From Sipunculus nudus (Eukaryota; Annelida; Sipuncula; Golfingiida; Sipunculidae): 64,000 bases of DNA. Below the pieces are notes generated by a model. The model saw nothing but the letters and a program-made list of their open reading frames with translations, was not told the DNA's origin and did not search any database. The position numbers and the translations under genes were made by a program. This document shows, piece by piece, positions 10,612-56,947 of this stretch. Numbering within the stretch: position 1 is the first letter of the stretch; each line of letters starts with the position of its first letter. The stretch lies in NCBI GenBank assembly GCA_026874595.1, contig CM049317.1:16787382-16851381 (forward strand). Reading direction: 5' to 3'.

Positions 10612-11970
10612 ACAAGGTCACAAGCCTAATGCAAACCTGTGCAAAGTTTGGGAGTATGAATGGAGGTTAATTTTTAAAATTTAATATTGATCCTTTTATG
10701 TCCTGCATATCATCCTTAGTCCTTATGATTTCAGCAAAATGGACGTTATGGGGTTTCGGACTAGGACATTTTAAAGCTAGAATGTATTAGTCAGGATTTT
10801 TCGGATATAATCTTTTTGTCAGGGGGGATTGTTGGGACAGATGAATGGACAATTTGGCAGCATGGTTTCGGAGAAGAACATTTTTAAAACTTTTTTAGCT
10901 TCTTCCCTATAAAATCTAAGAGGATGCAGTTAGCCAAGAAATAAGCAAAATCCGATAGAATTTTTTTAGATGACAAACTTTTTCCCAAAATTTTGGTGAT
11001 GCTAGCTCCTGCCTGTTTTGAGATAGCTATGACGCACGAAGGAAAACGGTGGACGGACGACGCCACACCATAGCATAAGCTCACAGATTCGCTAAAAATG
11101 CAAACCAAGTTTTTTTTCAAACAGTTGAAAGATATAGTTCAAACAGTTCTAATCTGGGCATTCTGCGTCTAGATGTGTCGAGACGTCTAGACGCTGTGTC
11201 TAGACGTCTAGACACATTGTCTAGACACCAGAAAAAGCTAGGTCAGTTGCCATGGTGATGTCTGGACCCCACCTGGTTGTACTGAGTGACCTCTTGACTT
11301 GGCTGCTGAAACTCAGCATGTTGTCAAATCTGTTTTTAAACACAGAAAGCCTTTTTCAATTGCAGCAACTGGCAGAACCCTAACATAGAATAATTCTTGT
11401 AAAGTTTAAACCAATCAGCTTAACAGTTTCATCATAAAACAGTGTATAAGCTAGAAGAGTCTAATATTACATTTTCACTTGTAAAAAACAGATCAATGTT
11501 GGCGGCGCCACCAAGACCTCAATTTCCGATATGACATATGTGAGCACATTGACATTAAATCTGATGATAGCTCTAGCCATTTCTGAGATTGAAATTTTAG
11601 TGTGCTTTTTTGGACCGATGACTAAGTTCAACCTCCTGTAACTAGGCCGAAAATCTGGAACCATTCGAACAAATTCAAGAGATTGTTCCAGGGATCATTT
11701 CCGTGAAATATGGGACAATTTGGCTGGCAGGTTCGGAGAAGAAGATTTTTAAAACTTTTTTAGCTTTTCCCTATAAAATCTAAGAAATGCAGTTAGAAAA
11801 AAATAAACAAAATCCGATTTTCAGGTGACTGATTATTTGCAAAAAAAATTTGTGATGCTAGCTACCGCCGTTTTTGAGTTAGCTATGGTTAATTTACAGA
11901 CAACGTACGACGCACGACGGAACGACGGACGACGCCGCACCATCGCATAAGCTCACAGGTTCGCTAAAAA
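10612..11970 (-). mobile_element. Family A Helentron-like non-autonomous element, uninterrupted copy
   Basis: This aligns along its length with 51608-55551. Near the left end is GCAAACCTGTG, and the right end is CACAGGTTCGCTAAAAA. In the less decayed copy the two ends carry an 11-bp subterminal inverted repeat, GCGAACCTGTG. An internal terminus-like string (AGCTCACAGATTCGCTAAAAA, about 11069-11099) shows that the element is built from two modules. Short subterminal inverted repeats, terminal hairpins and no transposase fit Helentron-associated elements, whose 3' end would be at the left here. It contains a four-site GTCTAGAC cluster and one GGCGGCGCCACC palindrome-like block near 11501. Confidence 0.65.
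11185..11226. repeat. Cluster of four GTCTAGAC palindromes
   Basis: GTCTAGAC occurs at 11185, 11198, 11206 and 11219, with start spacings of 13, 8 and 13 bases. The middle pair forms overlapping TCTAGACGTCTAGA palindromes. The same four sites with the same spacing occur at 53896-53937 in the other family A copy. GTCTAGAC is the known palindromic Smad-binding element. A regulatory role here is only inference. Confidence 0.9.
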
Positions 11971-12767
11971 TTCAGGTGACCGTTTTTTATTTGTTTCATT
12001 CAACCGACTACAGTTCTTAGGTTGTATATGTATATATTAATAACACAAATAACCTCAAACTGAGTTAACTGATTTTTTTTAAAATTTGTTAGTACTGGTG
12101 TACATTTTATCAGCCAACCTTACTAATAAACCCGATGTCATGTATATTATGCATATTTGGGTAGAATTTCAAGATTATATGGGTTTTTAGACAATGTGAT
12201 GATGTAAGGATGATGTAAAAACGGTATCTTTGATATATAAAAAAAAAATCACGTACTTGTTGGCCGGTCTGACCTTGACCTTACTTAAGATGTCATCATA
12301 TATATGCTGCAGCTTATTTATAGTGTTTATGAAACTTAAATTGATAGCTTGAACATAACTATTCACTCAAGAAGGCTAGTAAAAGGAAACAAAATTATTA
12401 AAGAAAATTAAGTTATATGCACTTGTCTACCCCTGTGACTTTGACCTCTCACATAATATCATAAAGCATGATCTGAGGTTTAAAAAAAATATATAGGGCA
12501 ATTTGCCGCAATATACTAACAACTTAAGAAGGTATAAAGATTTCATTACCGCTATCTTATGATCGAGATTTTCAGGTTTTCATAGCCAGGGTGGTGTATC
12601 AACAAATGCTGTCACAAAATATCGCACCACTTTTCCACTTGAATCTGCCCTCACATTAATCCAGGGAATTGTAACTGATACCAATAATATGTAAATGAAT
12701 CTTAAATGGACAGCTTGAGTCAAACGTTTCACTCAAGAAAGGTAATAATGAAGCAACATTTTATAAG
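11971..12767. repeat. Degenerate repeat related to the GACCTTGACC tandem family
   Basis: It contains recurring phrases such as TGACCTTGACCTTACTTAAG, CTGTGACTTTGACCTCTCAC and ATTCACTCAAGAAGG (near 12353 and 12721). Phrases of this kind also appear in the ~290-bp repeats at 17.2-18.3 kb, though the copies are too diverged for clean borders. There is no coding content. Confidence 0.5.
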
Positions 12768-14254
12768 AAAACAAGTGACACGTGGGTCATGACGCTCAGC
12801 CGACTGACATGTTGACAATATGTCCGTGCACAGGAAACTAATTAAGTTAATATAGGTGGCATCATCATTCATGCATATTAGCTTAATTTCACCAAGACCC
12901 ATTAGCACACCAAATTTGATGAGAATCCAACCAGCCTTTCCTGAGGAACCTGGCAATTTGTGTGTATTTTTCATTACTTCTGGGATGCTTATACATACCC
13001 CTAAACTCTAAGATTATAGGTCACAGTGACCCAATTTTAGGTTTTGAGGAGAGAACTTTTGAGGAATTCTCAGGATGCATAGTGAGAAGATCCTTGGTTA
13101 TCATTTGGGCTCTTCTTTTGGTATCAAATTTTCAAATATTCTGGGGTGTGCTTATAAGCCCCATTGCTCGAAGATTATGGGTAACAGAGACCTAATTTCA
13201 TGCTTCAAAGGAAACATTTCATGGATCTCCCTGGATTTTAAGATTCTGGGTCCAATGTTTATAATTTGTGCCCTGCTTTGGTATCAAATTTTCAATTATG
13301 CTAGGGGTGCTTATAAGCCCCATAATTTCAGGTTTCATACGATATTTTTCATTGACCTCTCTGCCCTGATAACAGATGGCCGCATCTTTAAAGGTCTCAA
13401 AAATAGAGAGAAAACGCATACAAATTGGAAAAAATCCAGGTGACCCCACCAGTCTGCAAGAACTAATGAAACACTCCATTGTGAAGATGCATGCAAAGAA
13501 TCATGGCAATCAATCCACAATTTGTTGAGATACTAGAGCTTCTGTATAAAATTTTAAGTCATTCTTTGGGGTCTAAAGAGCCCCGTAGCTCAGAAATATG
13601 GGTAACAAAGATCTAATTTCAGGTTTCAAGGGATTTTAGTATTGAACTCCCAGCATGTCAAGATAGAAGATTCTGGGTCCAGTGGTTACGATTTGTGCCC
13701 TGTTAACAATGACCGCATCTTTTAAGGCCTCAAAAATAGAGAGAAAAAAATCATGAAAAATCGAAAAAATACAGGTGGCGCCACCAGTCATTAGGAATTG
13801 ATTGAACACACCATGATGAATATGCATGCAAAGAATCATGGCAAGCAATGAACTATTTGTTGAGATACTAGAGCTTTTGTATCAAATTTTTTAGTTGTTC
13901 TTGGGTGAACTTCAAAGCCCTATAGCTCAGAGGTTATGGGTAACAGAGACCTTCGTTTCCACGTTTCCAAGGAGTCTTTTAATGGGCCTCCCTGCATGTC
14001 AGGATAGACGATTCTAGGTCCAGTGGTCACGATTTGAGCCCTGTTATCAAATGACCGAATCTTTTATGGTCTCAAAAATTGAGAAAAATATTGTAAAATC
14101 AAAAAAAAAAAATACAGTTGGCGACACCTGTCCGCTTAAACCGATGAATCATTCCATGATCCATATCCATGCAAAGAATCATGGTTATCAATGCAATGGA
14201 TGACGGACAAAGGGTGATCGTTATAGCTCAGATAACTTACAGTCAGTTGAGCTT
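12768..14254. mobile_element. Family C element (1.49 kb) with tandem internal modules
   Basis: It starts with the motif GTGGGTCATGACGCTCAGC (12784-12802), shared with 31060, 45646, 50591 and 63113. It ends with a TATAGCTCAGATAACTTACA hairpin-type terminus and GTTGAGCTTA. GCTCAGC at the start and GTTGAGC at the end are inverted (best seen in other copies as GCTCAGCTG/CAGCTGAGC). Inside are about four diverged copies of a 190-330 base module containing the phrases TGGTATCAAATTTTCAA, ATAAGCCCCAT and GGTAACAGAGACCTAATTTCA. It carries GGTGGCGCCACC near 13775. All its open frames are shadows of the repeat. Confidence 0.7.
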
Positions 14255-14302
14255 ATTAGGTTTCATGTACTTTTAAACCCCTCTGACCATGACCTTTCAA
14301 AA

Positions 14303-15396
14303 CTAGAATACGGGTATTCGACAAGCGACTATGTGTATCCGCCAAAATCAGGGTGGAACGGGTTAAGTGAGGCATGGTTTGAGTGGCAAGGGGAAATAGA
14401 GTGAGGTGTGTTGCATATTAGCATGGATGTCTGCAGCCGAAATGTGTATATAGGTGGCGCCACCTGCCAAAAAAATCGAAATAGCTAAAAAGATGTATAA
14501 ACACGCAAAATTTTAGGCAGATAAGTAAAACCACTTCTGAGATATGAGTGATTTTAGGCCAAGGCAGACAAACAGACGGACGCTGTGCATAATGTTGGCC
14601 CAATCGTTCAAACGGTTCCCGAGATATAAGCTTGGATGTCTGCAGCGTAAACTAGAATGTAGGTGGCGCCACCTGCCAAAAAAAATCGAAATAGCTAAAA
14701 AAAGAACTATAAACCTGCCAAATGTTAGGCAGATATGTGAAACCACTGCCGAGATATGAGTGATTTTATCCAACGGCAGACAAACGGACGCTGTGCAAAA
14801 ATTGCATATGATAACGAGCTATGTGAGATCTATACACATGCAAATTTTCAGGAGGATACGTCAAACCAGTCCGGAGATATAAGCATGGATGTCTGTAGCG
14901 TGAACATGAATGTAGGTGGCGCCACCTGTCATAAAATCAAGAAAGCTATCCAGGATGTATACGCATGCCAAATTTCAGGTGAATTAGTCAAACCACTGCG
15001 GGGATATGACTGATTTTAACCCAAGGCCGACGAACAGATGGCCACTGTGCAAACATGGTTGCAGGTGGCGCCACCATTTTTTGTGTATGTTATAAAACTA
15101 TCCAAGGGCTACATTTGTAAAAAAATTATTCCTGATCGGTCAAACGCATCCTGAGATATGTGGGTTTATGTGTGGAAACAGACGCACAAATGGACGCTGG
15201 GCAGAGAGGAAAGGTCGAAGGTCAACGCAAATTGGTTAGGCACCAGTTCACATGTGACCCGATAATTGGTGTAAGTTTCGGAAAAAAATTAGTCCAGTAG
15301 TCGCAGAGGAGTTCTCCGGAAACGAATGCGGCGGCGGCGGAGGCGGAACCCGGTCAGAAACATAGTATCCGCAAAACTTCGTTTTGGCTCATACAA
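14303..15396 (-). mobile_element. Family B Helentron-like element, copy 1
   Basis: The left end reads CTAGAATACGGGTATTCG, then ACAAGCGACTATGTGTATCC. The right end is GTATCCGCAAAACTTCG, then GTTTTGGCTCATACAA. The CTAG, the nearby hairpin and the inverted GTATCCGCCAAAA/TTTTGGCGGATAC pair are the terminal signals of this family, here slightly mutated. On the minus strand the hairpin is followed by CTAG and then host T, as at a Helitron/Helentron 3' end. The interior holds 130-150 base modules, each with GGTGGCGCCACC (14451, 14662, 14914, 15063). No protein-coding capacity is visible. Confidence 0.75.
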
Positions 15397-15902
15397 ATAT
15401 CTTCAAGCATGATCTGAGGTCGAAGCAAAATTTCTCTTTCAACTGAGGGGCAATTTTTTTTCAATATATAAGATCCCTAAGAAGTTGCAGAGATTTTTAA
15501 TACCCCCAACCTGTGGTTGGGAACACTAATTTACACATTTTCACCGCCGGAATAGTGCATAAATACATACTCCCAGGAAAAATTACATCACTTGCAGTTG
15601 CTTCGACCCTGACAATATACTAGAGAAGGTTAGATGAAACCTTGTACCTTTGGAAATATTTAGGCGATGGGGAAAACAACAAACTTTAAATAAGTCACTT
15701 TTTCTCACTTAGCTCCTAGACTAATAGGCCTATTCGTACATCTTGGTATTCCTGGGTATATTAATATTTTTGTAGACCCTGCTTTGACCCGGCGTCTAAG
15801 CATTGCATGCTTCTTTATCAGGCCGGCGTTTAATAAAAAATACATTGTGAGGCTATGGAAGAAAAAAGCACAAAACAACACGTTGAAATAATAAAGAGAG
15901 AG
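15397..15902. other. AT-rich intronic DNA, no gene recognised
   Basis: Contains a short palindrome AAGCATTGCATGCTT near 15799 and a stretch resembling the GATCTGAGGT phrases of the neighbouring repeats. Nothing coding is visible. Confidence 0.45.
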
Positions 15903-16200
15903 CAGAGGCGGATACAGCTATTTAGAATGGGGGGGGGGGGGGGGGGGGCTCACATTGCAAGGCCGCGAAGCAGGTGGGCCGACGCTCGAAACGCTGAAAC
16001 TCTGAAGCCGTGCATACTTAGCTTAAGGATTATATAAATAAGCATTAAAAATTGGAGGTGGTTACCTCCACCAAAAAGTTTGAAAAAAAAGAAAAGTACC
16101 AATGTAAAGATTTGAAAAAGATTGGGATTGTTATATAAAAAATGGGGGGGGGGGGGTCCAGATTCCATGGACCCTCCCCCCCCCCCCCCCCCCCATCTTG
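15903..16200. mobile_element. Poly-G/poly-C bounded inverted element, probably hAT-type MITE debris
   Basis: The left end AGCAGAGGCGGATACAG followed by an 18-G run resembles the CAG-GGCGGATCCAG-type start of many hAT elements. At 16145-16195 a G12 block, a GGTCCA/TGGACC stem and a long C run form an inverted repeat. The right poly-C lies next to CATCTTGATCTG. The element looks like one or two degenerate MITEs that carry homopolymer ends. Confidence 0.45.
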
Positions 16201-19100: not shown

Positions 19101-20394
19101 GTGTTTGAGAAAGAGTGTTAAGCAGTTTTTAATGTATCAAAGTATATTCAATACAACACATTGCTATTAACTATTCATGCGTATTTTCTCTTTACTGCAA
19201 ACTTTTTCCTGTTTGCTCTGAATAATTTATGCAGTGTAAATAATGTTAGGGCTTATACATCTTTAAGGTCAACACCCCTTTGATAATGGGATAAAATGTA
19301 TACGTCCTCTTTGTAACATATCAGAATGTTTCGAAGCAGTTTCTATTTGTATTAGGCCTTGGTCAATAAAGTTCATGTTCAAGTTCAAATTGCATAATGT
19401 GTTGGAGGCCCCTACATCTACTGAAACAAACCAAGCAACATGTTGGTATCCAAAGTACAAACCTTTCAAAGTCCTTTTATAAATTGAGAATCCACAGCAG
19501 TGCGGACCAAATATAATCCATCACTCAGAAACATAGAACGCCTATAGACCACCACTCGCTTCGGACATTACTTAGTTAAACGAAAGTAATGTTTGCTCAA
19601 TGTACAACCCTCATTATAAGCTTGACGACGCATTCCATGTGCAACCATATGTTGCCCCTCCCCCCCCCCCCCCCAAAAAAAAAATAAATAAATAAAAAGT
19701 AAAAGTAAACCAACAGTACTTTTATACAAGTTATAACATGTGAGGGGGACATTCCCTCGTAAAACAAGGCTCGTAATACTTTAAGCTCATTTTTGTCAAC
19801 ACATGTAAAAGGAGTTTTGTTGATGCTATTTTACGTGGCTCTTGTGTGTTTTAGTGTGAATAGGATTGTCCTGTGCCATTTTTTTATAATTAGCCCCTCA
19901 GTTGCCATATTAAACTAGACGACTTGGGCCATTCTTGATTTTTTAGTTGTTTTTTTTTATGTGGGTGTTCTTTGTGTGGCCTTGTGTGGGTGCAGCTATG
20001 AAAGTGCAGTTCGTCACTAGGAGAACATTCAGTCAATTGGCCAGGGGCGTGAATAGAGGGGAGATACGGATATATATCCAACCACTTTAAAGCAAGTGGG
20101 GGTGGTCAATGTTGAGAGAATAATATTTCTACACTGAAAATGAAATATATATATAATGTCCATTTAGGACTTAGATTCCATTTCTGAGTTTAATATGAAT
20201 GTACAACTAAACTTGGTTTAGAAATAACATATACATATACTTAGCCATGCGGATGTCTTATATATGATGATTCTCAAATTAATGTTAAGTATATTTTTCC
20301 TTGATCTCTTCATTCAAACAGCAAAGGAATTTATATCTTTCATGCTTAATAGTTATACAATATACTATATAAATTATCTTTATCTTTCTTGTAG
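19101..20394. other. AT-rich DNA before the GPCR exon
   Basis: Contains a poly-C/poly-A block (about 19658-19685), a CAGGGGCGTGAATAGAGG string near 20042 like other element ends here, and the branch/pyrimidine region of the splice acceptor at 20394. No gene. Confidence 0.45.
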
Positions 20395-21478
20395 GATGAA
20401 CGTGCTACTGTCAACGGTGGCTAATAGTATTGTTAATGAAGCACTTAATGATTCCTACCAGTCCGTGCTGCCGACAAAGCTACCTTACACCATGAATACG
20501 GAAGACCCAGAGTATGCTGATGCGAACAAAAGCGCAACCAACGAACCTCCGCTTCCTTATTGGACGACTCAGGCTCTGACGTCATTGGATGATATCACGG
20601 CATCCGGTTGGGTCTTTTTCAACAATGCCAAAATAGCCCTAAAAGCAAGCAGCGTGCTGTTCAACTTAATTGCCATAGCACTGATTCTGCGAAAGAATAT
20701 CCGAAGCTTTGTCATTTCGTGGTACTTGGGTTGTTTATGTGTGGCACATATCATCCACTATATAGTAGATTTTACAATATATTTTAATAACACCACTTTA
20801 TACAACCTCAAAGGTTACAGATGCTTTGGGGCGGCAGTTATTATGACAACCGCTTGCTCTGTATCTGCGGCAAACACGGTTGCAATATGTGTAATGCAAA
20901 TGGGGGCTGTGGTGTTTCCCTTTAAGGCCAAAACCTTATGGGCGCACAAAAGAGTTGCATTGGGAGTACTTTGCACAGTTATTATCTTCAGTGCTCTCAA
21001 TTCAATTCTTTTACTTTTTGCAGGATCTGGAAATATAACATGTACCAATCATGGTGTTGGCATCACTGCCCTTGTTGTTTACCAGACAATAGCAGTTGTT
21101 TGTTTGATAATCTTAAGCATCATCACTCTGAGATATTTGATCATAAACAAACGACGGGGCCGAAGTCTAAACGCAAACACCCAGGACCACTTCAATGATG
21201 CTATCATCAAATTTAAGGTCACATCGTTCACAATATGTCTGGTCTTTTGCATTTGCAAATGTCCATTTATTTTAACATTTCTAACCCAGTTCTTCATGGA
21301 TAGTCAGTTGACCTTTGCCCGGACACTCACCAGTGTGTTCCCAGATATATTCCGAGCCAGTCCCTTCTTTGTCTACATTTGCACAAGTGCTTACATGAGA
21401 TCAGAACTGAAGCGGTGTTTTCTGAGACGATCCGTACTGACCGCCCAAAAAACCAATACCAAAATGTCGGCGAAATAA
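20395..21478 (+). CDS. Class A (rhodopsin-like) G-protein-coupled receptor, divergent; seven-TM exon
   Basis: The exon follows a strong acceptor (TTTCTTGTAG at 20394). The open frame also runs 131 bases upstream into AT-rich DNA, which I treat as intron. Translation starts either at the ATG at 20396 or in the exon at 6524, giving 371 residues in the joined model. The N-terminal tail has sequons at N29 and N55. Membrane segments lie near 93-111, 117-139, 152-177, 198-220, 234-260, 284-311 and 320-342. Family marks are N101 in TM1, the TM3-ECL2 pair C154/C227, CKCP (298-301) in TM6 in place of CWxP, SPFFVY (333-338) in place of NPxxY, and helix 8 SAYMRSELKRCF. Unusually, MQM (178-180) replaces DRY, the TM2 Asp and the TM4 Trp are missing, and the C tail is short. 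Ligand unknown. It resembles the divergent, lineage-expanded invertebrate receptors. It acts at the plasma membrane. Confidence 0.85.
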
Positions 21479-23162: not shown

Positions 23163-23167
23163 ATATG

Positions 23168-39827: not shown

Positions 39828-40747
39828 GTATGTTGAAAAAAAGTGATTGCGTTCACACGGCAAAAAGTATAATTCGGCTAATTTGACCTCGAAGATCCTG
39901 GTTAAGGTCACTGGGTTTTATTTGGTGTACCAAATTTTAGGACAAAATGATAAATACTTCAAAAGTAGCGAGGTTAACAAAAAAATCAAATTTCGGTAGA
40001 TTGGACCTGGAAGATGAAGGTCAAGGTCAACGGCTTTCGAACTCCCCCCTAATTTTGGGATGAACAATGATTGTTAAATGTTTGGAGGAAATTAAGCAGC
40101 CCTTAAAAAATTATCGCGCTCATAACATTTCCTGAAAACGACGACGACTGACGACGAAGATGATGGCACTGAAAACAACTTCTCCCATGGGGAGAGAGGA
40201 GGGAGGGGGCGCGGGGAGAGGTATTATTAACACATCTGTTACAAGAATATTGTAATTAGTAAATTATTTAATTAATTGGTTGTAGTTTAAGGCTGGCATA
40301 CACGTTGCATACTGACTCTACTCAACAGGTAAAAACAAAGTTGTTAAGTCGCATCGCAGTTCTAATGCTTGAAAACGACGCGATTTAACCAAAGTCGCCA
40401 CCTGTCGGCGTCAGACCTGTGTGGGTGTGTGGCAGTGTCAGAAAAAAAGTGTCTTTTGAAGTCGTGTCGCTTAGGAGCACATTTCACAACCGATCACACC
40501 TAAGTCTCTGACAACATGAGTACCTAGGCCATGAACTCGCCTGGGCCACACATCTCATGGTATAGAGAGAGGCAATATTACAAAGGCACTGTGTCATTGT
40601 ATATTATTAGATTTGTACAGCCAGTATCCCCAATGCAATGGCAACATAATATCACATATAGAATATGTATTACAGGAAATCGACTATTATATTTTTTAAA
40701 CTTACATTATATTAAACTAATTTTTTTTCAGCTACAGGGTGGATAAA
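39828..40747 (+). other. Intron of the lectin-like gene, repeat-rich
   Basis: It contains phrases such as GATGAAGGTCAAGGTCAACG and GACGACGACTGACGACGAAG that belong to interspersed elements, and a G-rich block near 40190-40220. No coding exon with family resemblance was found. Confidence 0.5.
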
Positions 40748-40749
40748 AA

Positions 40750-42226
40750 CTAGAATACGGGTAGTCGACAAGCGACTACGTGTATCCGCCAAAATCAGAG
40801 AAGGACGGGTGAAGTGAGGCATGGATTGAGTGGCAAGGGGATATAGAGTTACATATGTAAAATATTAGTATTGAATCTCTGCCACATAAACATGATTGTA
40901 GGTGGCGCCACCTGTTATTTGAACGAGAAACTATCCAAGATATATACACATGCAAAATTTCAAGTGGAAAAGTCAAACCACTGCAGAGATATGAGTGATT
41001 TTATCCCACAGCAGACAAACAGATGGACGCTGTGCAAACATGGTTGCAGGTGGCGCCACCTTTTGTTGTGTATGTTATAAAGCTATCCCAGGGCTACATT
41101 TGTGTAAAATTTTTTTCCGGATCGGTCAAACGGTTCCCGAGATATGAGCTTGGATGTCTGCAGCGTTAACATGAATGTAGGTGGCGCCACCTGTCATAAA
41201 ATCAAGGAAGCTATCTAGGATGTATACGCATGCCGAATTTTAGGTGAATTAGTCAAACCATTGCAGAGATATGAGTGATTTTAACCCCAGGCAGATGAAC
41301 AAATGGACACTGTGCAAACATGGTTGCAGGTGGCGCCATCTTTTGTTGTGTATGTTATAAAGCTATCCCAGGGCTACATTTGTGTAAAATTTTTTTCCGG
41401 ATCGGTCAAACGGTTCCCGAGATATATGGGTTTATGTGTGGAGCGTTAACGTGAATGTAGGTGGCGCCACCTGTCATAAAATCAAGAAAGCTATCTAGGA
41501 TGTATATGTATTCCAAATTTTAGGTGAATTAGTCAAACCACTGCAGAGATATGAGTGATTTTAACCCCAGGCAGATGAACAAATGGACACCGTGCAAACA
41601 TGGTTGCAGGTGGCGCCACCTTTTGTTGTGTATGTTATAAAGCTATCCCAGGGCTACATTTGTGTAAAATTTTTTTCTGGATCGGTCAAACGGTTCCCGA
41701 GATATATGGGTTTATGTGTGGAGCGTTAACGTGAATGTAGGTGGCGCCACCTGTCATAAAATTGAGAAAGCTATCTAGGATGTATATGCATGCCAAATTT
41801 TAGGTGAATTAGTCAAACCACTGCAGAGATATGAGTGATTTTAACCCCAGGCAGATGAACAGATGGACACTGTGCAAACATGGTTGCAGGTGGCGCCACC
41901 TTTTGTTGTGTATGTAATAAAGCTATCCCAGGGCTACATTTGTGTAAAAAAAATTTCCGGATCGGTCAAACGGTTCCCGAGATATATGGGTTTATGTGTG
42001 TAAACAGACGCACAAACGGACGCTGGGCAGAGACGAAAGGTCAGAGGTCAAGGTCACTTGGTTAGGCACCAGTTCACATGTGACCCGATAATTTGTGTAA
42101 GTTTCAGAAAAATCTGTCCAGTAGTCTCAGAGGAGTTCTCCGGAAACGAACGCGGCGGCGGCGGCGGCGGCGGCGGAACCCGGTCAAAAACATAGTATCC
42201 GCAAAACTTCGTTTTGGCGGATACAA
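40750..42226 (-). mobile_element. Family B Helentron-like element, copy 2 (best preserved)
   Basis: At the left, CTAG (40750-40753) is followed by a perfect hairpin GTAGTCGACAAGCGACTAC (40761-40779) and GTATCCGCCAAAA. At the right, GTATCCGCAAAAC and GTTTTGGCGGATAC form a second hairpin (42195-42224). GTATCCGCCAAAA at the left and TTTTGGCGGATAC at the right are subterminal inverted repeats. Read on the minus strand, hairpin, CTAG and host T form a Helitron/Helentron-type 3' end. The interior has eight modules of alternating 131 and 149 bases, each with GGTGGCGCCACC or a one-base variant. Near the right end is a (CGG)n run (42152-42175). It lies in an intron of the lectin-like gene. Confidence 0.8.
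42152..42176. repeat. (CGG)n trinucleotide run inside family B
   Basis: About eight GCG/CGG triplets. The matching place in copy 1 (near 15327-15347) has a shorter GCGGCGGCGGAGGCGG run, so the tract has expanded or contracted between copies. Confidence 0.9.
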
Positions 42227-42646
42227 TGATTGAACGAGAATATAATGATTGATATATAAAATGACAAATGTAACAATGATTTTGCGTTCATGGCACTGAA
42301 TTATCTGAATTATCATTTATGTTAAATTGAACATGCTGCATCTGCTGTCGATCAAGTTACGTTTAGTGGTTAGGTGTATGCACCAATTGATTGCCAGTGA
42401 GCAGATTCAAAAACTTGGGTGGGGGGGGGGGGGGCGGGGGACTGTACAAACTGGAGGATACTTGCTCAGTCGGGACGATGAATCGGTTGGCGTCGCGACG
42501 CACGTGTTTTCTGGTTTTTTTTTATTTGAGAAACTCTCATTAATGACACAGCCTTCGGTCTTTTTTACAGCAGTCATGAAAAGTATGATGTAATCTCATT
42601 GTTTCTCTTCATAATGCAATAATCCACTGTGTCGATTGTCCCAAAG
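42227..42646 (+). other. Intron DNA before the first CTLD exon
   Basis: It holds a poly-G run (42420-42436). A strong pyrimidine/AG site at 42570 (CTTTTTTACAG type) would place stop codons before the CTLD in every frame. The only AG between the last upstream stop and the CTLD is at 42645-42646. Confidence 0.5.
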
Positions 42647-42844
42647 GGTTTTCAAATGGCTTCAGATATGGACATAAAGTAATAAACGGTACATGGATCC
42701 CCAGTTGCTATGCTCTTCAGTTCACCTTAGCAAATTGGGCCCAGGCTAGAAATGGATGTAGCAGACTGAAAGGTTCCCTTCTTAGCATAGAAACAGAGAG
42801 TGAGCAACGTCACATAGAGAAGTTGCTTACAAAGAAGAGAGAAG
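42647..42844 (+). CDS. Lectin-like gene, CTLD exon A
   Basis: 198 bases, phase 1 at both ends, acceptor CCCAAAG (42646), donor GAAG|GTATGT (42844/42845). The peptide shows the N-terminal half of a C-type lectin-like domain: SCY, then NWAQARNGC, LKGSLLSIETESEQ and HIEKLL. SCY and the cysteine in NGC are the usual C1 and C2, and GSLLSIETESEQ matches the conserved helix-2 region. Just before the chosen acceptor, the DNA reads CPKGF in frame, a common CTLD start, so the true exon border might lie a little upstream. CTLD proteins bind sugars or other ligands, and in molluscs many are secreted defence or matrix proteins. That role here is inferred from family. Confidence 0.8.
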
Positions 42845-43667
42845 GTATGTCCCTACAAGCAGTTCCTGTCCCAACTCTGTTGAGCCAGTAGGCTTTTTAT
42901 CTACTATCTACCAACGTATAGTATAACTTTTCCTAGCGGGCGCCTTCATAAAGCGGGCACCTATGTCTAGTGGGCAGTTATTGGCAGTCCCGTTTTTAGC
43001 TCAGCTTACTGAAAGTTAAGCTTTAGCGATCACTATTTGTTCGTCGTCCGTCTGTCCCTCCGTCTGTCGTACCGTCCGTCCGTTATTAGGGCACAAATCG
43101 TAACCGCTGGGCCTAGAAACTTCAAACTGAAAAATCATGGAGGTTAAAAAAATTCAACTTGGAAAACCTTTATCCTCCGAGCAATGGGGTTTTTGCAAGT
43201 AACCCGCAGAATAATAAAAAGAATGACACAAAGATGCAGTATCTGAATAACTAATGCATAGATTGCCATGCTTCTTTTCATACATATTGATCATGGAGTG
43301 TTGCACCAGTTCCTAAAGACTGGTGGCGCCATGTGAAATTATATTACATTTTCTCTATTTCTGAGCCCTTCAAATGAAGAAGTCTGGCCCTCAATAGGAC
43401 TCAAATCGCAACCGTTATACCTTGAAACTTTTAACTTTACATGAAGGGAGGTCCCAGGCAAATACCCTTTGAAACCTGAAATAGGTCATAGTGACCTATA
43501 TTTCAAATTCATCTGAGCGTCATGAACTTTGGGCCATCAATTTCTCCTCATTATCTATATCAATATAGAGGTTTAACCATATATATTTTTTTAATATATA
43601 CTTACGTAACAAAAAAAAGAGAAGAAAAAAACACTGTGCATTTGATATATCTTGGTTATTCTTTTAG
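42845..43667 (+). other. Intron between the CTLD exons
   Basis: Bounded by GTATGT and a CTTTTAG acceptor (43667). It contains a complete family C element in minus orientation. Confidence 0.75.
42992..43535 (-). mobile_element. Family C element, complete short copy (~545 bp)
   Basis: Reverse-oriented. The left end TTTTTAGCTCAGCTTACTG is followed by GTCCGTCTGTCC-type words. The right end CTGAGCGTCATGAA is the reverse complement of the family start motif. It contains the module phrases ATTAGGGCACAAATCGTAAC and GGTGGCGCCATG (about 43322). Having both ends, it is the smallest complete copy and defines the family borders. Confidence 0.75.
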
Positions 43668-43843
43668 AAGGCAAAACTAGATTATGGTGGACATCGGGAA
43701 AAAATGTCGAGGGAAAATGGATATGGCGATCAACTGGCGAACCCTTTGCTTTCAGCAACTGGGAAACAAGTCAAGCAGGCATCCAAGGGTGGCCAGAGTC
43801 TTCTCTTGTCCTGATGGCCAATAGAAAATGGTGTGGACTCTAA
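43668..43843 (+). CDS. Lectin-like gene, CTLD exon B with frameshift near the end
   Basis: The acceptor CTTTTAG is at 43667, and the leftover G of exon A plus AA makes Glu. The peptide continues the fold: LWWTSGKNVEGKWIWRSTGE, then PFAFSNWE, which match the WIGL and WxWxxG...NW core. The EPN/QPD and WND calcium-sugar motifs are absent, and a serine stands at the expected third cysteine (PESSLVLM). The frame stops at TAA 43841-43843 right after NRKWCGL. One base over, the expected domain end (NAYYICEC) runs on to TGA at about 43887. So the last strand and the fourth cysteine are lost by a small indel, or there is an assembly error. If real, the gene may be a pseudogene or make a truncated protein of about 254 residues (270 with the optional exon). 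Confidence 0.75.
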
Positions 43844-44085
43844 TGCTTACTATATTTGTGAATGTAGTGCTATCTGCACTTGAGTACATGTTGAACAAAA
43901 TATTTAAAAGGGCCTAAACCAACGTCTGTTACCTAAAGACAATCCCTTGAACCTTTCTTAAATATAGGCCAGAAAATGCTGATCCCACGATACACAGATT
44001 GTTCGTTCTGTTTATACCCACATACTTATAACATTAATGGGACCGACATAATAATTCAAGCAATTTCAACAAGAATAACTGGCGG
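43844..44085 (+). other. Downstream region of the lectin-like gene
   Basis: It includes the shifted-frame end of the CTLD (to ~43889) and presumed 3' UTR. The first AATAAA hexamer after it is at 44284-44289. No further exon seen. Confidence 0.4.
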
Positions 44086-45645: not shown

Positions 45646-46747
45646 AAACTAGGGACCCATGGGTCTCGACGCTCAACAGAATTTGTCTATAAGTTTATAG
45701 TGATAGATATGTTTATTTGCCTTTTCAAAAAGTGTGATCATGTTTGAAGCTAATCTGTTAACCATACTAGATTAATGATCGATAAACCAATTTGTGAATG
45801 AAGGGACTCTTTGACCTTCGCCTTTGACATTGTGTTCCCAAAATCAAACAGAATTGTTCCCAATTGGCAGGAGCACCACATGTGGAAGATGAAAGATTTG
45901 AGATAAAAAGTTAAGCTTAAAATGCATCCATACTCTTTTTAAAGGAAAAGGTTCTGTGACCTTGACCGCTATCCTCTACACCAAAAAATCAACAGAATCC
46001 TGCTTTCGAGGTGGGCCACAAATATATGAAGTTTGAAATCCATATATCATTCAAAACTGGAATTATCTTTTGGAAACAAATTTGACGGACGTACTGAAAG
46101 ATGCACAGTCTGACAGACGGCCGGATAATAATAAACATAGTTTCAGGACACCAGATGTCACCACAGATGCGAATCTGATAGTATCAATATAATTTGGCAA
46201 TTTTGAAATAAAGGAAAAATGCAACAATAAAGAAAAAAAAACATGTGGCGTCACCAGTCTTCAGGTATTGAAGAAAAAAGTCAAAATCAATAAACACAGC
46301 AGGTTTAGGGACTCTATATGAAACCATCGACGAGAACTGTCATAACTGCCATTTGACAGTCTATAAAACACCAAAAAATCGTAAAAATTAAAAAAACATG
46401 GATGGCGCCACCAGTTTTCCTGAACTTGCAACACTGGTCATGGTCAATATTCAAGGCAAGATTCATGGCATTCCAAGCATTAATTATCAAGATACTAGAT
46501 GTTTTGATTCAATTTTTAATTAATCTGGGGGTACTTACCAGCCTTATGGTCGCAATGACCTAATTTAAGGTCTCAAAGGAGATTGTTTAGTGACCTCTTT
46601 ACATATTTACTTAAAAGTTTCTGGGGTTAGTGGTTATGATATGTGCCTTGCTAACGGATGGACAGACGGCGGGATGGCGAGGCGGCCGACGGACAAAGCG
46701 CCATTGCTATACCTCAGTATAATGACTTTCATTCAGCCGAGCTTAAA
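45646..46747. mobile_element. Composite element: C start motif, D module, C module and C end
   Basis: GGGACCCATGGGTCTCGACG at the left is the family C start. A family D unit follows (about 45790-46085: TTTGACCTTCGCCTTTGAC, TTGAAATCCATATATCATTC). Next come C-type modules with GTGGCGTCACCAG (46244) and GATGGCGCCACCAG (46402), a GACGGACGG-type stretch, and a decayed CTCAGTATAATGACTTTC/GAGCTTA end. D appears elsewhere without C ends, so this copy shows that modules combine inside one element. Confidence 0.65.
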
Positions 46748-46789
46748 ACCGTTCACGTACGATTCACCAGGGTAGCTCCCGGAGTTTCA

Positions 46790-50590: not shown

Positions 50591-51607
50591 AAAAAACAAG
50601 TGACCCATGGGTCATGACGCTCAGCTGCCAAGCACGACCTGCGACATCATGGGCTGAGATTAACAACTTCCAGTCAAATTTTGAAGAACCAATTTGCTAA
50701 TTTGTTGAAATTTTCTATGACAACAGAAATATATATCACCTATGTCTGGTTAAAACATAGTGAATTGATGGTGTGAGGAAAAATGAATGATTGTTAAGCT
50801 ATCAGGAACTATTCCCACAGCTTGCATGATACCTGTCAGTCTCAAAAAGAACACCACAAAGGGCAAATATAAGATCAAAATATATAGCAAAATCAAGGAA
50901 ATCCATGCAAGAATTATCGAGAAACGGGTGATTCTGTATGAATTTTTATTCAAAACAAGCCAACTACTGCACTTTTATAAATGATGGTAATATTTATTAA
51001 GAAATATTTGACCCAATCCTTTACAAGATTACATAAATATACATCCGACTGCATTCACTTAAACAGTTCTTGAGATAATATTATCAAAAGGAATTAAAAG
51101 ATGGTTGCCTGGTGGCCATATTGGACTTCTGACAGGTGTGAAATTAGACAACAAACATTCTCTTAATCGGACCAAACATTGAAGAAAAATCACTGAAACT
51201 GCACTGAAAAAAAGGATTTCTAAGGTGAGTAACTGGCAGACATAATGGATTTCTGACAAGTCAGACATTTGATATCACACACCCTCCAATAAGAGACCAA
51301 ACTTGGGGCAAATTCTCCAAATGATGTTACAGTAATGAATGTCCAAAAAAATTCAAAAGGCATGTTCAGGCCCTCATATAAGATTTATAGATATGCAATT
51401 GTAAAAAGTGTAAGTCCAATATTTTTTTGTTATCACTCTGCTTTTCAATGGGGTCAGCAGGGTAGGTAAACTGCCAAACCCGAAAGAAAAGAAATGCAGA
51501 AGCATGACTAAGAGACTTGAAATAAAAGAAAAGCTATTCTAAATCCAGGTACACATCCACATATTATGAGAACAAACACTTGCTTTTATATGTGGTGATA
51601 TATATAA
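50591..51607. mobile_element. Truncated family C-type element (start motif only)
   Basis: GTGACCCATGGGTCATGACG and CTCAGCTGCC form a well-preserved start motif with the GACCCATGGGTC palindrome. The typical TAGCTCA/TGAGCTA end is missing before the family A element begins at 51608. The interior does not match the C modules clearly. Confidence 0.5.
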
Positions 51608-51778
51608 CAAGGCCTACAGGCCTAATGCGAACCTGTGCAAAGTTTGGGAGTATGAATAGAGGATTATTTTTAAAATTTCTTATTGATCCTCTTATGTCCT
51701 GCATATCTACCTTGGTATTATGATTTCAGCAAAATGGACGTTTCGGACCTGCAAATTTCGGAATAGGACATTTTTAAA

Positions 51779-53500
51779 CTAGAATATAGGTAGTCGACAA
51801 GCGACTACATGTATCCCACCGAAATCAGAGTGGGATGGGTGAAGTGAGGCAGGGATTGAGTGACAAGGAGAAATAGAGTGAGGTGAGTTGCATATTAGCA
51901 TGGATGTCTGCAGCTGAAATGTGTATGTAGATTGCGCCACCAACCACAAAATCCAGAAAGCTGTCCAGGCTATATACTTATGCAAAATTTTAAGCAGATA
52001 AGTCAAACCACTACTTGTATATTAGTGATTGTATCCAACAGCAGAAAAACAGAAAGATGCTGTGCAAAAAATGATTACAGGTGGCGCCACCAAGTTTGCG
52101 AATGATAAAGAGCCATGTGAGATCAATACATATGCAAAGTTTTAGCCCAATCGGTCAAAAGTATCCCGAGATATGAGCTTGGATGTCTGCAGCGTAAACA
52201 TGAATGTAGGTGGCGCCACCTGTCATAAAATCAAGAAAGCTGTCCAGCATGTATAAACCTGCAAAATTTTAGGCAGATATGTCGAACCACTGCCAAGATA
52301 CGAGTGATTTATCCTACGGAAGAAAACAGACGGACCCTGCGAAAAATTTTTGCAGGTGGCGCCACCAGTTTTGCGTATGATAAAGAGCCATGGGAGATCT
52401 ATACACATGCAAAATTTTGGCCAAATCGGTCAAATGGTTCCCGAGATATGAGCTTGGATGTCTGCAGCGTAAACGTGAATGAAGGTGGCGCCATCTGTCA
52501 TAAAATCAAGAAAGCTGTCTAGGATGTAAAAACCTGCAGAATTTCAGGTGGATAAGTCAAACCACTGCCGAGATATGAGTGATTTTATCCCACAGCAGAC
52601 AAACAGGAGGATGCTGTGCAAAAATGGTGGCAGATGGCACCACCAATTTTGTATATGATTAAGAGCGATATGATTTCTATACATATGCAAAATTCAGGGG
52701 GATATGTCAAACCAGTCCTGAGATATAAGCCTGAATGTCTGCAGCGTAAACATAAAAGTAGGTGATGCCACCTGCCACAAAATCGAGAAAGCTAGCCAAG
52801 AAGTATAAACATGCAAAATTTTAGGCAGATATGTCAAACCACTGCCGAGATATGAGTGATTTTATCCCAAGGCAGACAAACAGACGGACACTGTGCAAAA
52901 ATGATTACAGGTGGCGCCACCAAGTTTTCGAATGATAAAGAGCCATGTGAGATCTATACATATGCAAAATTTTAGCCCAATCGGTCAAAGGTTTCCCGAG
53001 ATATGAGCTTGGATGTCTGCAGCGTAAACATGAATGTAGGTGGCGCCACCTGTCATAAAATCAAGAAAGCTGTCCAGCATGTATAAACCTCCAAAATTTC
53101 AGGTGGATAAGTCAAACCACTGCCGAGAAATGAGTGATTTTATCCCAAGGCAGATGAACAGATGGACGCTGTGCAAAATGGTTGCAGGTGGTGCCACCAT
53201 TTTTAGTGCATGTTATAAAGCTATCCAAGGGCTACATGTTTAGCCTGCTCGGTCAAACGGTTCCCGAGATATGTGGGTTTATGAGTGGAGACAGACGCAC
53301 AAAGGGACGCTGGGCAGAGAGGAAAGTACAGAGGTCAACCAAAAATGAGGGCGCAGCTCCTCACATGTGACCCAATCATAATTCCGAATTTAAAAAAATA
53401 CTGCCAAATGGTTCCGGAGGGGTTCTCCGGAACCTAAACGGTGGCGGCAGCGTCCGACTGAAAACAAAGTATCCGCAAAACTCTGTTTTGGCAGATACAA
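51779..53500 (-). mobile_element. Family B Helentron-like element, copy 3, nested in family A
   Basis: It starts CTAGAATATAGG with the hairpin GTAGTCGACAAGCGACTAC, and ends GTATCCGCAAAAC and GTTTTGGCAGATACAA. Comparison with the uninterrupted A copy (10770-10800) places the borders at CTAG and about ATACAA, and fits insertion between two T bases on the minus strand. It contains about ten modules alternating near 128 and 149 bases with GGTGGCGCCACC or variants (52080, 52207, 52357, 52909, 53039 and others). Confidence 0.85.
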
Positions 53501-53895
53501 CGAGGATGTATCAGTCAGAATATTTTGGATATGTTCTTTTTACCAGGGAGGATTAATGGAACAGATGAACGGAAAATTTGGCAGCATGGTATCGGAGAAG
53601 AACATTTTTTTAATGTTTTTTAGCTTCTTCTAAATCCAGTTAGCCAAGAAATAAGCAAAATCCGATAGAATTTTTTAGATGACAAATTTTTGCAAAAAAT
53701 AGGTGATGCTAGCTCCTGTCCTTTTTGAGATAGCTATGACGCACGACGGACGAACGAAGACGAACGAAGCCACACCATTGCATAAGCTCACAGATTCAAT
53801 AAAAAATGCTAATCAAGTTTTTTCAAACAGTTGAAAGATATAGTTCCAATAATTCTAATCTGGGCATTCTGCATCTAGACGATAAGTCTGTAGAC

Positions 53896-53937
53896 GTCTA
53901 GACGCTATGTCTAGACGTCTAGACACATTGTCTAGAC
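53896..53937. repeat. GTCTAGAC cluster, second copy
   Basis: Four sites at 53896, 53909, 53917 and 53930 with spacing 13, 8 and 13, as at 11185-11226, although the bases between some sites differ. Confidence 0.9.
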
Positions 53938-54123
53938 ACCAGAAAGAGCCAGGTCAGTTGCCATGGTGATGTCTGGACCCCACCTAGTTGTACTGAGTTA
54001 CCTCTTGATTTGGCTGCTGAAACTGGGCATGTTGTCAAATCTGTTTTCAAACACAGAAAGCCTTTTTCAATTGGCTACGCTGTTTTTACAGCTGCATTTA
54101 CCCAATCTATTCTTATAAAACTG

Positions 54124-54937
54124 TGTTACGGAACCTAATATAAACAGATCAAGTATGCATGATGAACACAAATTCTGTAACAAAGATGAAAAAAATCAGA
54201 TTCGGTGACACTAGGCAGCGTGAAATGTGTAGGGGAATGAAAAAGAAGTCAGTGGTTTTTTTGTTAACAAATAACTATAATTTATTCTTAAAACAACCCT
54301 TACAATACAATACACTAAATCAATACAATTATAAAATAAAACAGCGGTATAGCAACAAGTCAATACAATCACATAGAAAAATAACGTGCACAGTACCTGG
54401 ATACCAACACCGTCACCACGATAAGTCCTTTAAACGTAAACACTCGGAGAATGACAGTCCAGTGGAAAGTTCTTGCGACAACCCAGAAAGTAAACTGAAG
54501 TCCAAATGTATAAAATCCAGGAGAAAGTTTTTGAAAATCTATAATTGCCGCATTAGTCGGATAAGGTCCTAGAATCTGACACACGTTTCTGCGTCCGCCG
54601 GAATCTTCTCTGCTCTCTGCCCTTCCGTTCTAAAACACACCCCTTTATATATCTTCACACCTCAAACCGAGAATTTTCCACTTCTCGAATAGTCTATAAG
54701 ATCTTGCACAACACAGTCTACACGCATTTCAGGAATTCTCCAGAAAAAACAGCGCTGTGTATCTCCACATACCAGGCTCATCACGTGATCAACGACCAAG
54801 CGTGGAAACAAAAGGTTAAACATGACAACTAGAGTTCAACCAGTACGGATTAAACATAGAATGTAATACGCGGCCAGACACGAGCGCCACAACAGGAGCT
54901 TCGCCCGTCTCACACAATAAAAAGAGCACCTGTAACA
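54124..54937 (-). mobile_element. Solo LTR (814 bp), minus strand, nested in family A
   Basis: On the minus strand it begins TGTTACAGGTGC and ends TTCCGTAACA. The host bases ACTG flank both sides (54120-54123 and 54938-54941). On the minus strand a TATATAAA-type box (54644-54651) precedes an AATAAA signal (54281-54286). It is related to the LTR at 23168-24031 but diverged. The 137-residue plus frame and 71-residue minus frame inside are LTR sequence. No internal retroelement genes are present. Confidence 0.85.
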
Positions 54938-55551
54938 ACTGGCGGAATCCTACCATAGAATAATTCTTGTAAAGTTTAAACCAATCAGCTTAACAGTTTC
55001 TTAAAATAAGTGTATAATCTAGAAAAGTCTAAACTTACATTTTTTGCTTGTAAAAACATATCAATGTAGGTGGCGCCACCAACACCTCAATTTCAGATAT
55101 GACTCATGTGACAAACATTGGCATAAAATTTGGTGATGACAGCTCCAGCTGTTTCTGAGATTTCAAGTTCAGTATGCTTTTTTTTTGCACAGATGACTAA
55201 GTTCAACTTCCTGTAACTCGGTAAAATTTCAACAAACTTGAAAGAGATTGTTCCAAGGAACATTTCTTTGAAATATTGGACAATTTGGCTGGACAGTTTA
55301 AAAAAAAAAAGATTTTTAAAGGTTTTTAAGCTTTTTCTCTATAAAATCTAAATTAATGCAGATAACCAATAATAAGCTCCAGGGCACCAAGTTTCACACG
55401 TGACTAATTCTTACATGTAATTTGGAGCTGCTACCTCCGACGGTTTTTGACATACAGCCATGGACGGCGGAAAGCCAGCCCTGGACGGCGGACGGCGTAC
55501 GGCTGACGGACGACGCTGCGCCATCGCATAAGCTCACAGGTTCGCTAAAAA

Positions 55552-55839
55552 TATACAGATATCTAGGAAACTAAGTTTATTGCTATAATTCCATAAAATA
55601 AATTGCAAAATGTTCCTCATCTTATAAATCAGTAGCTAAACCTAAATACTATACTCTCATAGTCTAAATGCCTGGCTGAAGTATTCCGACAGCTGTGTTT
55701 TTTTGTGCAGTAACGAGGTACTTATCACTCAGCCTTATCACTTAACAGGCTGATACAAAAGGTAGTCTCATGTCACCCGTGTCACTCACAATAACAGCCA
55801 CACAGGGAGATGTACCAGCTGGAGTGAAATGGTTATATA
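55552..55839. other. Spacer between family A and the next composite element
   Basis: No gene or repeat recognised. Confidence 0.4.
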
Positions 55840-56947
55840 TACAAGAAAAAAGGAGATGGTCTACAAAATAAGTAGTTGTGAACATCCCTGACCTATGACC
55901 TTGGCCTTTTGCCCACATATCAACTGGATTCTTTCTAAATGATGGGTAACTACAAACCACTTAAATCTGGTGTGATTACTTGGCAGCCAATGAGTGAATA
56001 AATTTGACCTGCAACCTTTAACTTCCTGACCAGCCGATCCAAAAATCAATAAGTTATTTATTCAAGCAAAAAGACCCATAAATATGAAGTTTGAGTCAAA
56101 TTGAGTGATGCATAGATGAAGCATATGTGAAAGACTGAAGGTTTGGATTGAACAGTTACACTTGAAATATGTTCACAGACATTTAGAACAATTTACTATT
56201 GTGACCTTAGCCTTTGACCTTTTGACCTCAACATCAATAGGCTTCTTCGCCTATTGGAAGGTAAGCCATATATGATAGATGGAAGGTATAGATTGAAAAG
56301 TTTGCCTGAAAATGACTCCACGCAAAAAAGGGTGAGCTGTGAACTTGACCTTTGACCTCAAAATCAACAGCTCTTTTCCCCTGTTGGCAGAGAAGCGATA
56401 TCAGTGCTGGAAGGTTTGGAATAAAAAGTCTAGCTTGAAATGTGTGCCCAACCTTTTCAAAGAAGTGGATCTGGTGACCCTGACCTTTGACCTTGTGACC
56501 TCAAAATCTATAGGATTCTTCTCCCACTTAGTAGGTGAGTTATATGTGAAAGATCAAAGAATTGGGATGAAAGGTTTGGGTTAAAATGCATCCACAGGCT
56601 TTTCAAAGAAGTGGCTCCTGTGACTTTGACCTCAAAATAATTATTGTTCTTCCCTGTTGGTAGGTGAGCTGTATGTGAAAGATGGAAGGTTTGGGATGAA
56701 AATTTTGGCTAAAGAATTATTTCTGGGGGGGGGGGGGATGCAAACACTCTGCAACTTCGAGAATATAGGTCACAGTGGCCTAATTTAAGGTTTGCAAGAT
56801 CTTTTTAGAACCTCTAAGACTACATAGGGTTCATGACCCTAGCCCCTACGGTTACGATTTGTGCCCTGCTAACAGACGGACAGACGGAAGGACGATGGAC
56901 AAAGACCCATTGCTATAGCCCAGCATGACTTAAAGTCAGCTGAGCTA
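55840..56947. mobile_element. Composite element: tandem D units with a family C end
   Basis: Five or so D units of about 120-140 bases carry TGACCTTTGACCT-type strings (exact DR1 at 56346-56358 and 56481-56493) and GGTGAGCTATATGTGAAAGA words. A C-type module follows (GGTCACAGTGGCCTAATTTA, TTACGATTTGTGCCCTGCTA), then GACGGACAGACGG words and a terminal hairpin ending CAGCTGAGCTAA at 56947. No coding content. The 81-residue frame at 56339 is a shadow. Confidence 0.7.

What the first reader, a model, noticed from the sequence alone, without database searches (positions are those of the whole stretch)
10612..56947. Three different repeat families share the 12-bp palindrome GGTGGCGCCACC
The palindrome (or a one-base variant) occurs about 25 times and is strongly concentrated inside families A (near 11501, 55070), B (once per ~140-bp module in all three copies) and C (13775, 43322, 46244, 46402). 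Outside these modules the families do not align, yet the core is kept while surrounding sequence drifts. That pattern suggests a retained module exchanged between elements, a protein-binding or structure-forming site, or a replication/rolling-circle signal. The observation is direct. The function is inference.
Basis: partly seen in the sequence, partly recalled or inferred. Interest (0 to 1): 0.72.

Follow-up and report, generated by a model that had tools for sequence, protein, structure and literature searches.

The report
Palindrome shared by Helentron-type repeat elements
Three families of mobile DNA in this animal genome carry the same 12-letter palindrome inside their internal repeats; the families look like known non-coding rolling-circle transposons, and the palindrome is a conserved part of their shared repeat unit, with a function still to be shown.

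Summary
GGTGGCGCCACC occurs 18 times exactly plus 5 times with one mismatch in the window (0.02 expected), all 23 inside families A, B and C; the 1.43-Gb genome holds 111,729 exact copies against 14 for the reversed control. A, B and C have the main anatomy of Helentron non-autonomous elements (HINEs): sub-terminal inverted repeats, a 3' palindrome, mostly A/T-rich insertion sites. Their ends are unrelated, but their central repeats look like one diverged superfamily, marked by the palindrome and a GAGATA box 66-80 nt away (49 of 74 exact copies; 1.4% of 5,000 random positions). So 'the families do not align' is only partly right. With the palindrome masked, B modules keep it better than their flanks (5.6% against 13-18% mismatch), though a few flank windows do as well; in C the effect is weak. 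I read it as an inherited, constrained protein-binding box in double-stranded DNA (inference). Folding gives no excess structure. A partial match to the CTCF consensus is an untested lead. The autonomous partner was not identified (2 of 143 candidates looked at).

The parts
10611..11971 (-). Family A copy 1 (HINE-like): 3' end on the left with decayed palindrome and subTIR GCAAACCTGTG, 5' end on the right with CACAGGTTCGC (plus-strand letters)
11501..11512 (.). Palindrome in A1, one mismatch (GGCGGCGCCACC)
12770..14255 (-). Family C copy 1: 3' end AACAAGTGACACGTGGGTCATGACGCTCAGCCGACT (decayed), three C modules, 5' end TATAGCTCAGATAACTTACAGTCAGTTGAGCT
13774..13785 (.). Palindrome in C1, exact; two-mismatch module copies at 13439 and 14117
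14300..15396 (-). Family B copy 1 (HINE-like), 4 exact palindromes (14453, 14662, 14915, 15064)
40747..42226 (-). Family B copy 2, ends best preserved: 3' end ACTAGAATACGGGTAGTCGACAAGCGACTACGTGTATCCGCCAAAATCAG, eight alternating T1/T2 modules, 5' end GTATCCGCAAAACTTCGTTTTGGCGGATAC
42995..43545 (+). Family C copy 2 in the opposite orientation, between two stretches that read by eye like C-type lectin; palindrome at 43322 with two mismatches
46244..46749 (-). Family C copy 3, right part with 5' end; left boundary not resolved; palindromes 46244 (two mismatches) and 46401 (one mismatch); the C model itself matches 46353-46506
51606..55552 (-). Family A copy 2 with 3' palindrome AGGCCTACAGGCCT and subTIR GCGAACCTGTG at both ends; holds B3 and an insert of about 860 bp (54073-54936)
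51776..53500 (-). Family B copy 3 nested in A2, ten modules, 7 palindromes with at most one mismatch
55069..55080 (.). Palindrome in A2, exact

Best explanation
Families A, B and C are Helentron-type non-autonomous rolling-circle elements (HINEs) with unrelated ends. What they share is the central satellite-like repeat unit. Its variants descend from one old sequence, of which mainly the palindrome GGTGGCGCCACC and a GAGATA box 66-80 nt away are still recognisable. Shown here: the anatomy of the ends, the copy number, the fixed spacing, and the better average preservation of the palindrome in B modules. Inferred: B modules depart from their consensus at about 13-18% of flank positions but at only about 4% of the ten non-CpG palindrome positions, so the palindrome was held constant in the lineages that went on transposing. 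The likeliest reason is that a dimeric, or twofold-acting, DNA-binding protein of the host or of the autonomous partner reads it as double-stranded DNA and helps the element amplify or be expressed. Nesting of one HINE in another then passes modules between end types.
For: Ends: set against the published HINE plan (PMC7492417, PMC4067079). Copy number. Conservation with the core masked: 91 of 96 modules (5 with gaps dropped), 61 substitutions in the core, 5.6%; 22 of the 61 are C>T or G>A at the central CpG. Windows of twelve columns as conserved as the core: T2 0 of 108 in both groups, T1 3 of 107 and 8 of 107. Spacing of GAGATA. Shared boxes over ten representatives. Rank among dispersed 12-mers. 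Nesting and composites. No excess folding. Helitron_like_N domain matches in the host.
Against: In family C the palindrome is barely better kept than its neighbours. In B other windows are as good in T1 (TATGAGTGATTT), and in T2 too when window and picked stretches are scored apart, each with its own consensus (4 of 107 and 5 of 107). GATGGCGCCACC is found 4,761 times forward and 4,764 reverse; independence predicts about 203 copies of the matched double GATGGCGCCATC, 431 are found. That could mean compensatory change in a hairpin, or only that old copies carry more changes; the non-complementary control did not complete. The palindrome folds as a short stem in four of five predictions. No binding or expression data. 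Upstream DNA of 2 of the 143 listed Helitron-like matches shows no A, B or C end. Modules are related copies, so counts are not independent, and the T1/T2 models were built from window modules located by the palindrome.
Confidence: 0.64

Rival explanations
1. Pure shared descent: the module spread between HINE families by nesting and capture, and the palindrome has no function; it looks conserved because of chance and homogenisation within arrays.
For: Nested composites at the same offset; in C the palindrome is hardly better kept than its flanks; other boxes of the module are kept about as well in B.
Against: Flanks of the ten representatives are 33-62% identical between groups (D1 and D2, 81%, are one group) although the palindrome is kept (exact there by choice of representatives); B core 5.6% against 13-18% mismatch.
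Confidence: 0.27
2. The box is a binding site for the insulator protein CTCF (or a relative with the same fingers), spread by HINEs.
For: The plus strand reads (G)YAGGTGGCGC, which fits SYAGRKGGCRS, 11 of the 14 positions of the human consensus CCASYAGRKGGCRS (PMC6746451); GTA or GCA precedes the box in 78 of 91 B modules. Molluscs are reported to have CTCF orthologs (PMC10658182, passages).
Against: The three outer bases CCA are not matched, and in C and D modules the S position is A. Substitutions at positions 4 and 6, which the consensus fixes, are among the commonest. A post-hoc match among many known motifs. The host's own CTCF was not looked for.
Confidence: 0.12
3. A structural signal: the palindrome extrudes or folds and acts as a pause, nick or recombination site in rolling-circle replication or array expansion.
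For: Carriers are rolling-circle elements; in another bivalve satellite 13 of 16 junctions map to a 12-bp palindrome (PMC5139131, passages); the palindrome forms a short stem in four of five predicted folds; two of 91 B modules carry a matched change on both arms; matched doubles in excess.
Against: Whole modules fold no better than shuffles; the two matched modules have the same core letters, so may be one lineage; the excess lacks its control.
Confidence: 0.13

Closest known systems
Cg_HINE elements of the Pacific oyster (PMC7492417; passages, and part 1 of the Results and of the Discussion read)
   Same: Same plan: 5' subTIR with IR, microsatellite (GTCY types among them), short array of mostly 140-180-bp satellite-like repeats in fixed orientation, 3' subTIR and palindrome, oligo-T insertion sites, no target duplication. 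The paper also reports two conserved segments shared by monomers that are otherwise dissimilar (CL4 and the CL1/2/10/13 group), a precedent for shared boxes
   Different: That precedent is among elements similar in their flanks; its group 3 is called unrelated in all modules. Here elements with unrelated ends share a palindrome box. No sequence comparison with oyster elements was possible with these tools
DINE-1 and mite HINEs (PMC4067079; passages read)
   Same: Sub-terminal inverted repeats, 3' stem-loop, central repeats, T-T insertion
   Different: The passages read mention no palindrome box in the central repeats
BIV160 / Cg170 satellite family of bivalves (PMC5139131; passages read)
   Same: Family of diverged repeats that share two well-conserved motifs, linked to pearl/HINE-like elements
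   Different: Consensus not available here; the two BIV160 primers give only ungapped matches of 18 of 25 and 16 of 21, which I take as chance level without a formal test

Membership tests
HINE (non-autonomous Helentron) | Sub-terminal inverted repeats of about 11-15 bp at both ends | tested here: met
   B2 GTATCCGCCAAAA at both ends; A2 GCGAACCTGTG at both ends; C in L037 GCTCAGCTGACT at both ends. Other copies are decayed to various degrees
HINE (non-autonomous Helentron) | Inverted repeat complementary to the 5' subTIR close to it | tested here: met
   B: GTTTTGCGGATAC; C: AGTCATCTGAGCT or AGTCATGCTGAGCT. Not resolved for A
HINE (non-autonomous Helentron) | Palindrome near the 3' terminus, outside the 3' subTIR | tested here: met
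   A2 AGGCCTACAGGCCT; B2 GTAGTCGACAAGCGACTAC; C (L037, L046) TGACCCATGGGTCA; decayed in A1 and C1
HINE (non-autonomous Helentron) | Microsatellite near the 5' end and central tandem repeats in fixed orientation | tested here: inconclusive
   By eye: GTCC/GTCT repeats in C, an imperfect GTC-rich stretch in A, GCC repeats in B. Tandem arrays in B and C; A copies hold one palindrome module. Module strand agrees with the directional B 3' end in 12 of 12 cases where both were called, all on the plus strand
HINE (non-autonomous Helentron) | Insertion in T-rich sites without target duplication | tested here: inconclusive
   By eye many ends abut A/T runs. One comparison, B3 in A2 against A1, shows no duplication beyond AA, but that insertion is shared by an amplified composite
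HINE (non-autonomous Helentron) | Autonomous Helentron partner with the same ends | tested here: inconclusive
   143 Helitron_like_N matches listed, 150 of 195 candidates scored; upstream DNA of 2 of 143 inspected, no A, B or C end found
CTCF binding site | Consensus CCASYAGRKGGCRS | tested here: inconclusive
   11 of 14 positions fit in B modules with GTA or GCA before the box (78 of 91); the outer CCA does not
CTCF binding site | Binding in vivo or in vitro | not testable with these tools
   No chromatin or binding data
BIV160 / Cg170 satellite family | Sequence similarity to the family consensus | tested here: inconclusive
   Only two primers were available

The most novel reading that the evidence does not exclude
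HINEs of several kinds in this genome have converged on, or inherited, one essential duplex box that recruits a host architectural zinc-finger protein of CTCF type, so that rolling-circle transposons have seeded about 110,000 exact potential binding sites, in palindromic two-way form, across a 1.43-Gb animal genome.
Probability: 0.1. Interest if true: 0.85.

Novelty: new variant of a known kind. Interest (0 to 1): 0.5.

Why it matters
HINE central repeats are thought to be a source of satellite DNA, yet why particular repeats keep riding in these elements is open. A box kept across elements with unrelated ends gives a concrete handle: find the protein that binds it and one learns whether the repeats help transposition, expression or the host. 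If that protein were a host architectural factor, the elements would have placed its sites on a scale that matters for genome folding. It also shows that rows of 'different' repeat families in such genomes may be one superfamily of modules behind different ends.

Tried and rejected
Rfam at gathering thresholds: 0 matches in the window. IMG/VR scan for palindrome plus AWATTTYRG: 2 contigs; the stretch around each match looks by eye like ordinary coding DNA, with no sign of an element. GTDB scan for palindrome, AWWTTY and GAGATA: 4 contigs; two of four were read (L004, L006), no sign of an element; L003 and L005 were not read. IMG/VR scan for the B 5' end: none. Papers holding the exact 12-mer: one, on an endochitinase, seen as a listing; GGCGCCACC with satellite and mollus: none. 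A search for shared motifs in Helitron central repeats listed eight papers; I saw passages of five (PMC7492417, PMC4067079, PMC5139131, PMC8268682, PMC11136912) and only the listing of three. That the box across unrelated ends is undescribed rests alone; most subscription papers are not held, and figures with consensus sequences are not held either. BIV160 primer comparison: no good match.

The first core count was off by one column for T1 and was corrected; the T2 figures stand. The first C model was misaligned at the core and was rebuilt, where one seed (L054) is still shifted by four bases at the core. Rows dropped: 5 of 96 B modules with gaps; 2 of 41 C rows in the positional count, contexts too near a stretch end and repeated contexts. 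The group called unbiased holds the 20 picked stretches plus the window.

A compensation test was begun: single variant and complementary double. The control double and its single were asked for several times and never answered. A count of TGACCTTTGACCT and a search for the host CTCF gene were planned and not run.
Full report
What was checked. The 12-mer GGTGGCGCCACC occurs 18 times exactly and 5 times with one mismatch in the 64-kb window, against a mean of 0.02 in shuffles (my notebook entry gives 17 and 6 from memory of the table, which is wrong). Every one of these 23 lies in families A, B or C. The whole genome (1,426,538,692 bases in 153 contigs; the window is C12:16787382-16851381) holds 111,729 exact copies, against 14 for the word read backwards, and 218,178 against 575 with up to one mismatch. 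In 20 stretches of 10 kb at hand-picked places on C1-C12 there are 22 exact copies in 7 stretches. In the same stretches AGGTGGCGCCAC has the most copies of any 12-mer that passes my simple-sequence filters and is in at least 4 stretches (34 copies in 8). By number of stretches the first is AGTCAGCTGAGC (17 copies in 12), which lies in the 5' end of family C.

What the families are. Read on the minus strand, each family has the plan of a HINE as described in PMC7492417 and PMC4067079 (passages and sections seen). B2 begins GTATCCGCCAAAACGAAGTTTTGCGGATAC, a subTIR and its inverted copy, and ends with TTTTGGCGGATAC followed by the hairpin GTAGTCGCTTGTCGACTAC. A2 has GCGAACCTGTG at its 5' end, its inverse near the 3' end, then AGGCCTGTAGGCCT. 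C copies such as L037 have AGCTCAGCTGACT with an inverted copy at the 5' end, and the inverse followed by TGACCCATGGGTCA at the 3' end; the window copy C1 is decayed. By eye, GTCC/GTCT repeats follow the 5' end in C, an imperfect GTC-rich stretch in A and GCC repeats in B. These ends recur with different neighbours: pattern hits over window, 20 stretches and 12 merged C1 stretches are 20 for C 5' ends, 14 for B 5' ends, 12 for B 3' ends, 8 for A 5' ends and 2 for A 3' ends (near-palindromic 5' ends can be hit on both strands, so these include doubles). Window copies: B1 14300-15396, B2 40747-42226, B3 51776-53500, A1 10611-11971, A2 51606-55552, C1 12770-14255, C2 42995-43545 (opposite strand) and C3 ending near 46749.

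Nesting. B3 lies inside A2. Copy A1 shows the uninterrupted site, with no duplication beyond AA. Nesting at 187-188 bp from the A 3' end is seen at two loci (window, C1m_197417), at 289 bp in a third (L054), and B lies 193 bp from a C 3' end at two loci (L037, C1m_329749). So composites have amplified, and B3 in A2 cannot be used as a clean single insertion. Module types also cross end types: a further module lies between A ends in L040, another downstream of a B 3' end in L038.

The module. B arrays alternate two module types, T1 and T2, about 149 and 131 bp long, 61% identical outside the palindrome. Of 73 distinct contexts of exact palindromes in the fetched host DNA (those too near a stretch end left out), 67 score above 25 bits against a T1, T2, A or C model with the core masked (29, 23, 6 and 9); 6 do not. 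One of the 67 (L040:3071, 28.5 bits) also looks like a separate group. Together these seven fall, by eye, into about five further groups, D to H. Aligned representatives are 33-62% identical outside the core (D1 and D2, 81%, are one group), yet share boxes: A before the palindrome, a CATGC..AAATTT region near +45, and GAGATA (the core is identical there by choice). GAGATA starts 66-80 nt from the palindrome, on either side, in 49 of 74 exact copies, against 1.38% of 5,000 random positions in the fetched stretches other than the window. Copies of one family are not independent, but groups D and H show it at +76 too, and E and G with one mismatch at +74; F does not.

Is the palindrome kept better than its flanks? 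T1 and T2 models with the core masked found 96 modules; 91 without gaps have 61 substitutions in the core, a rate of 5.6% both in the picked-stretches-plus-window group (48 modules, 29 exact) and in the C1 group (43 modules, 22 exact), while the remaining columns depart from consensus at 13-18%. Windows of twelve columns as conserved as the core: for T2 0 of 108 in either group, for T1 3 of 107 and 8 of 107. Against this, when T2 modules of the window (11) and of the picked stretches (13) are scored apart, each with its own consensus, 4 of 107 and 5 of 107 windows are as good. So the palindrome is among the best-kept stretches of B, not the only one. Of the 61 changes, 22 are C>T or G>A at the central CpG; the ten other positions differ at about 3.8% (35 of 910). 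In family C the result is weak: core 0.877 against 0.817 elsewhere with 16 of 153 windows as good (29 rows), and 0.854 against 0.845 with 66 of 153 (12 rows); the G of the central CpG is the main loser. With C-flank probes that do not hold the palindrome, 34 places were found, 20 with at most one mismatch and 7 exact; in the picked stretches alone 13 and 4 of 19. The A-flank probe gave 10 hits, 9 with at most one mismatch, but only one lies in the picked stretches.

Mechanism. After insertion all columns should decay alike, CpG excepted. The extra divergence of the flanks therefore reflects differences between source lineages, and the palindrome was spared in them (inference). A hairpin is not supported by whole-module folding: five strands of 141-146 nt from four modules fold with z from -1.31 to +0.77, although the palindrome forms a short stem with a four-base loop in four of the five predictions. 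A complementary double variant is found 431 times where about 203 are expected from the single variant, but old copies carry more changes and the control did not complete; two of 91 B modules have matched changes on both arms, with the same letters. I therefore favour a protein that reads the duplex. The nearest named motif is CTCF: GYAGGTGGCGC fits 11 of 14 positions of CCASYAGRKGGCRS, with GTA or GCA before the box in 78 of 91 B modules. The outer CCA is absent, C and D modules have A at the S position, and positions 4 and 6 change often. This stays a lead.

Who moves them. The genome gives 143 listed matches to Helitron_like_N (150 of 195 candidates scored, so a lower bound), seven of them in open frames of more than 2,200 residues. 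DNA upstream of two of the 143 shows no A, B or C end and no palindrome with up to two mismatches. The partner is not identified.

Limits. No other mollusc genome could be searched. The palindrome-masked T1/T2 models were seeded with window modules first located by the palindrome.

Noticed in passing
window 1-5999: A/G-rich satellite-like array of 33-bp units (AACAGTCAGAGGAGAGTAACGAGAGGGAGTGTT), also read as 66 and 99 bp.
   Followed up: no
window 56137-56948: A C-type 5' end next to repeats with TGACCTTTGACC-like words instead of the palindrome; similar repeats at 17.4-18.2 kb and 45.8-46.1 kb. The word resembles a nuclear-receptor DR1 site (recalled).
   Followed up: no
window 42601-43860: Two stretches that read by eye like parts of a C-type lectin domain, with C2 between them; frames are interrupted. 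No family search was answered for them.
   Followed up: partly
window 57932-58459 (-): Open frame with an Integrase_H2C2 domain (E 6.3e-14), probably a retroelement remnant.
   Followed up: partly
window 20264-21478 (+): 404-residue open frame with a 7TM chemoreceptor match below the curated cut-off (E 0.0026).
   Followed up: partly
window 32295-33564: Tandem duplication of about 590 bp, 73.7% identical.
   Followed up: no
window 11167-11226 and 53874-53937: Dense TCTAGACG palindromic repeats inside both A copies.
   Followed up: no
L046:6963-9998, L051:7326-10000, C1m_329749 (merged from L023-L026): Composite elements: the B 5' end is joined to the same C-array sequence just before a palindrome variant at three loci.
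   Followed up: partly
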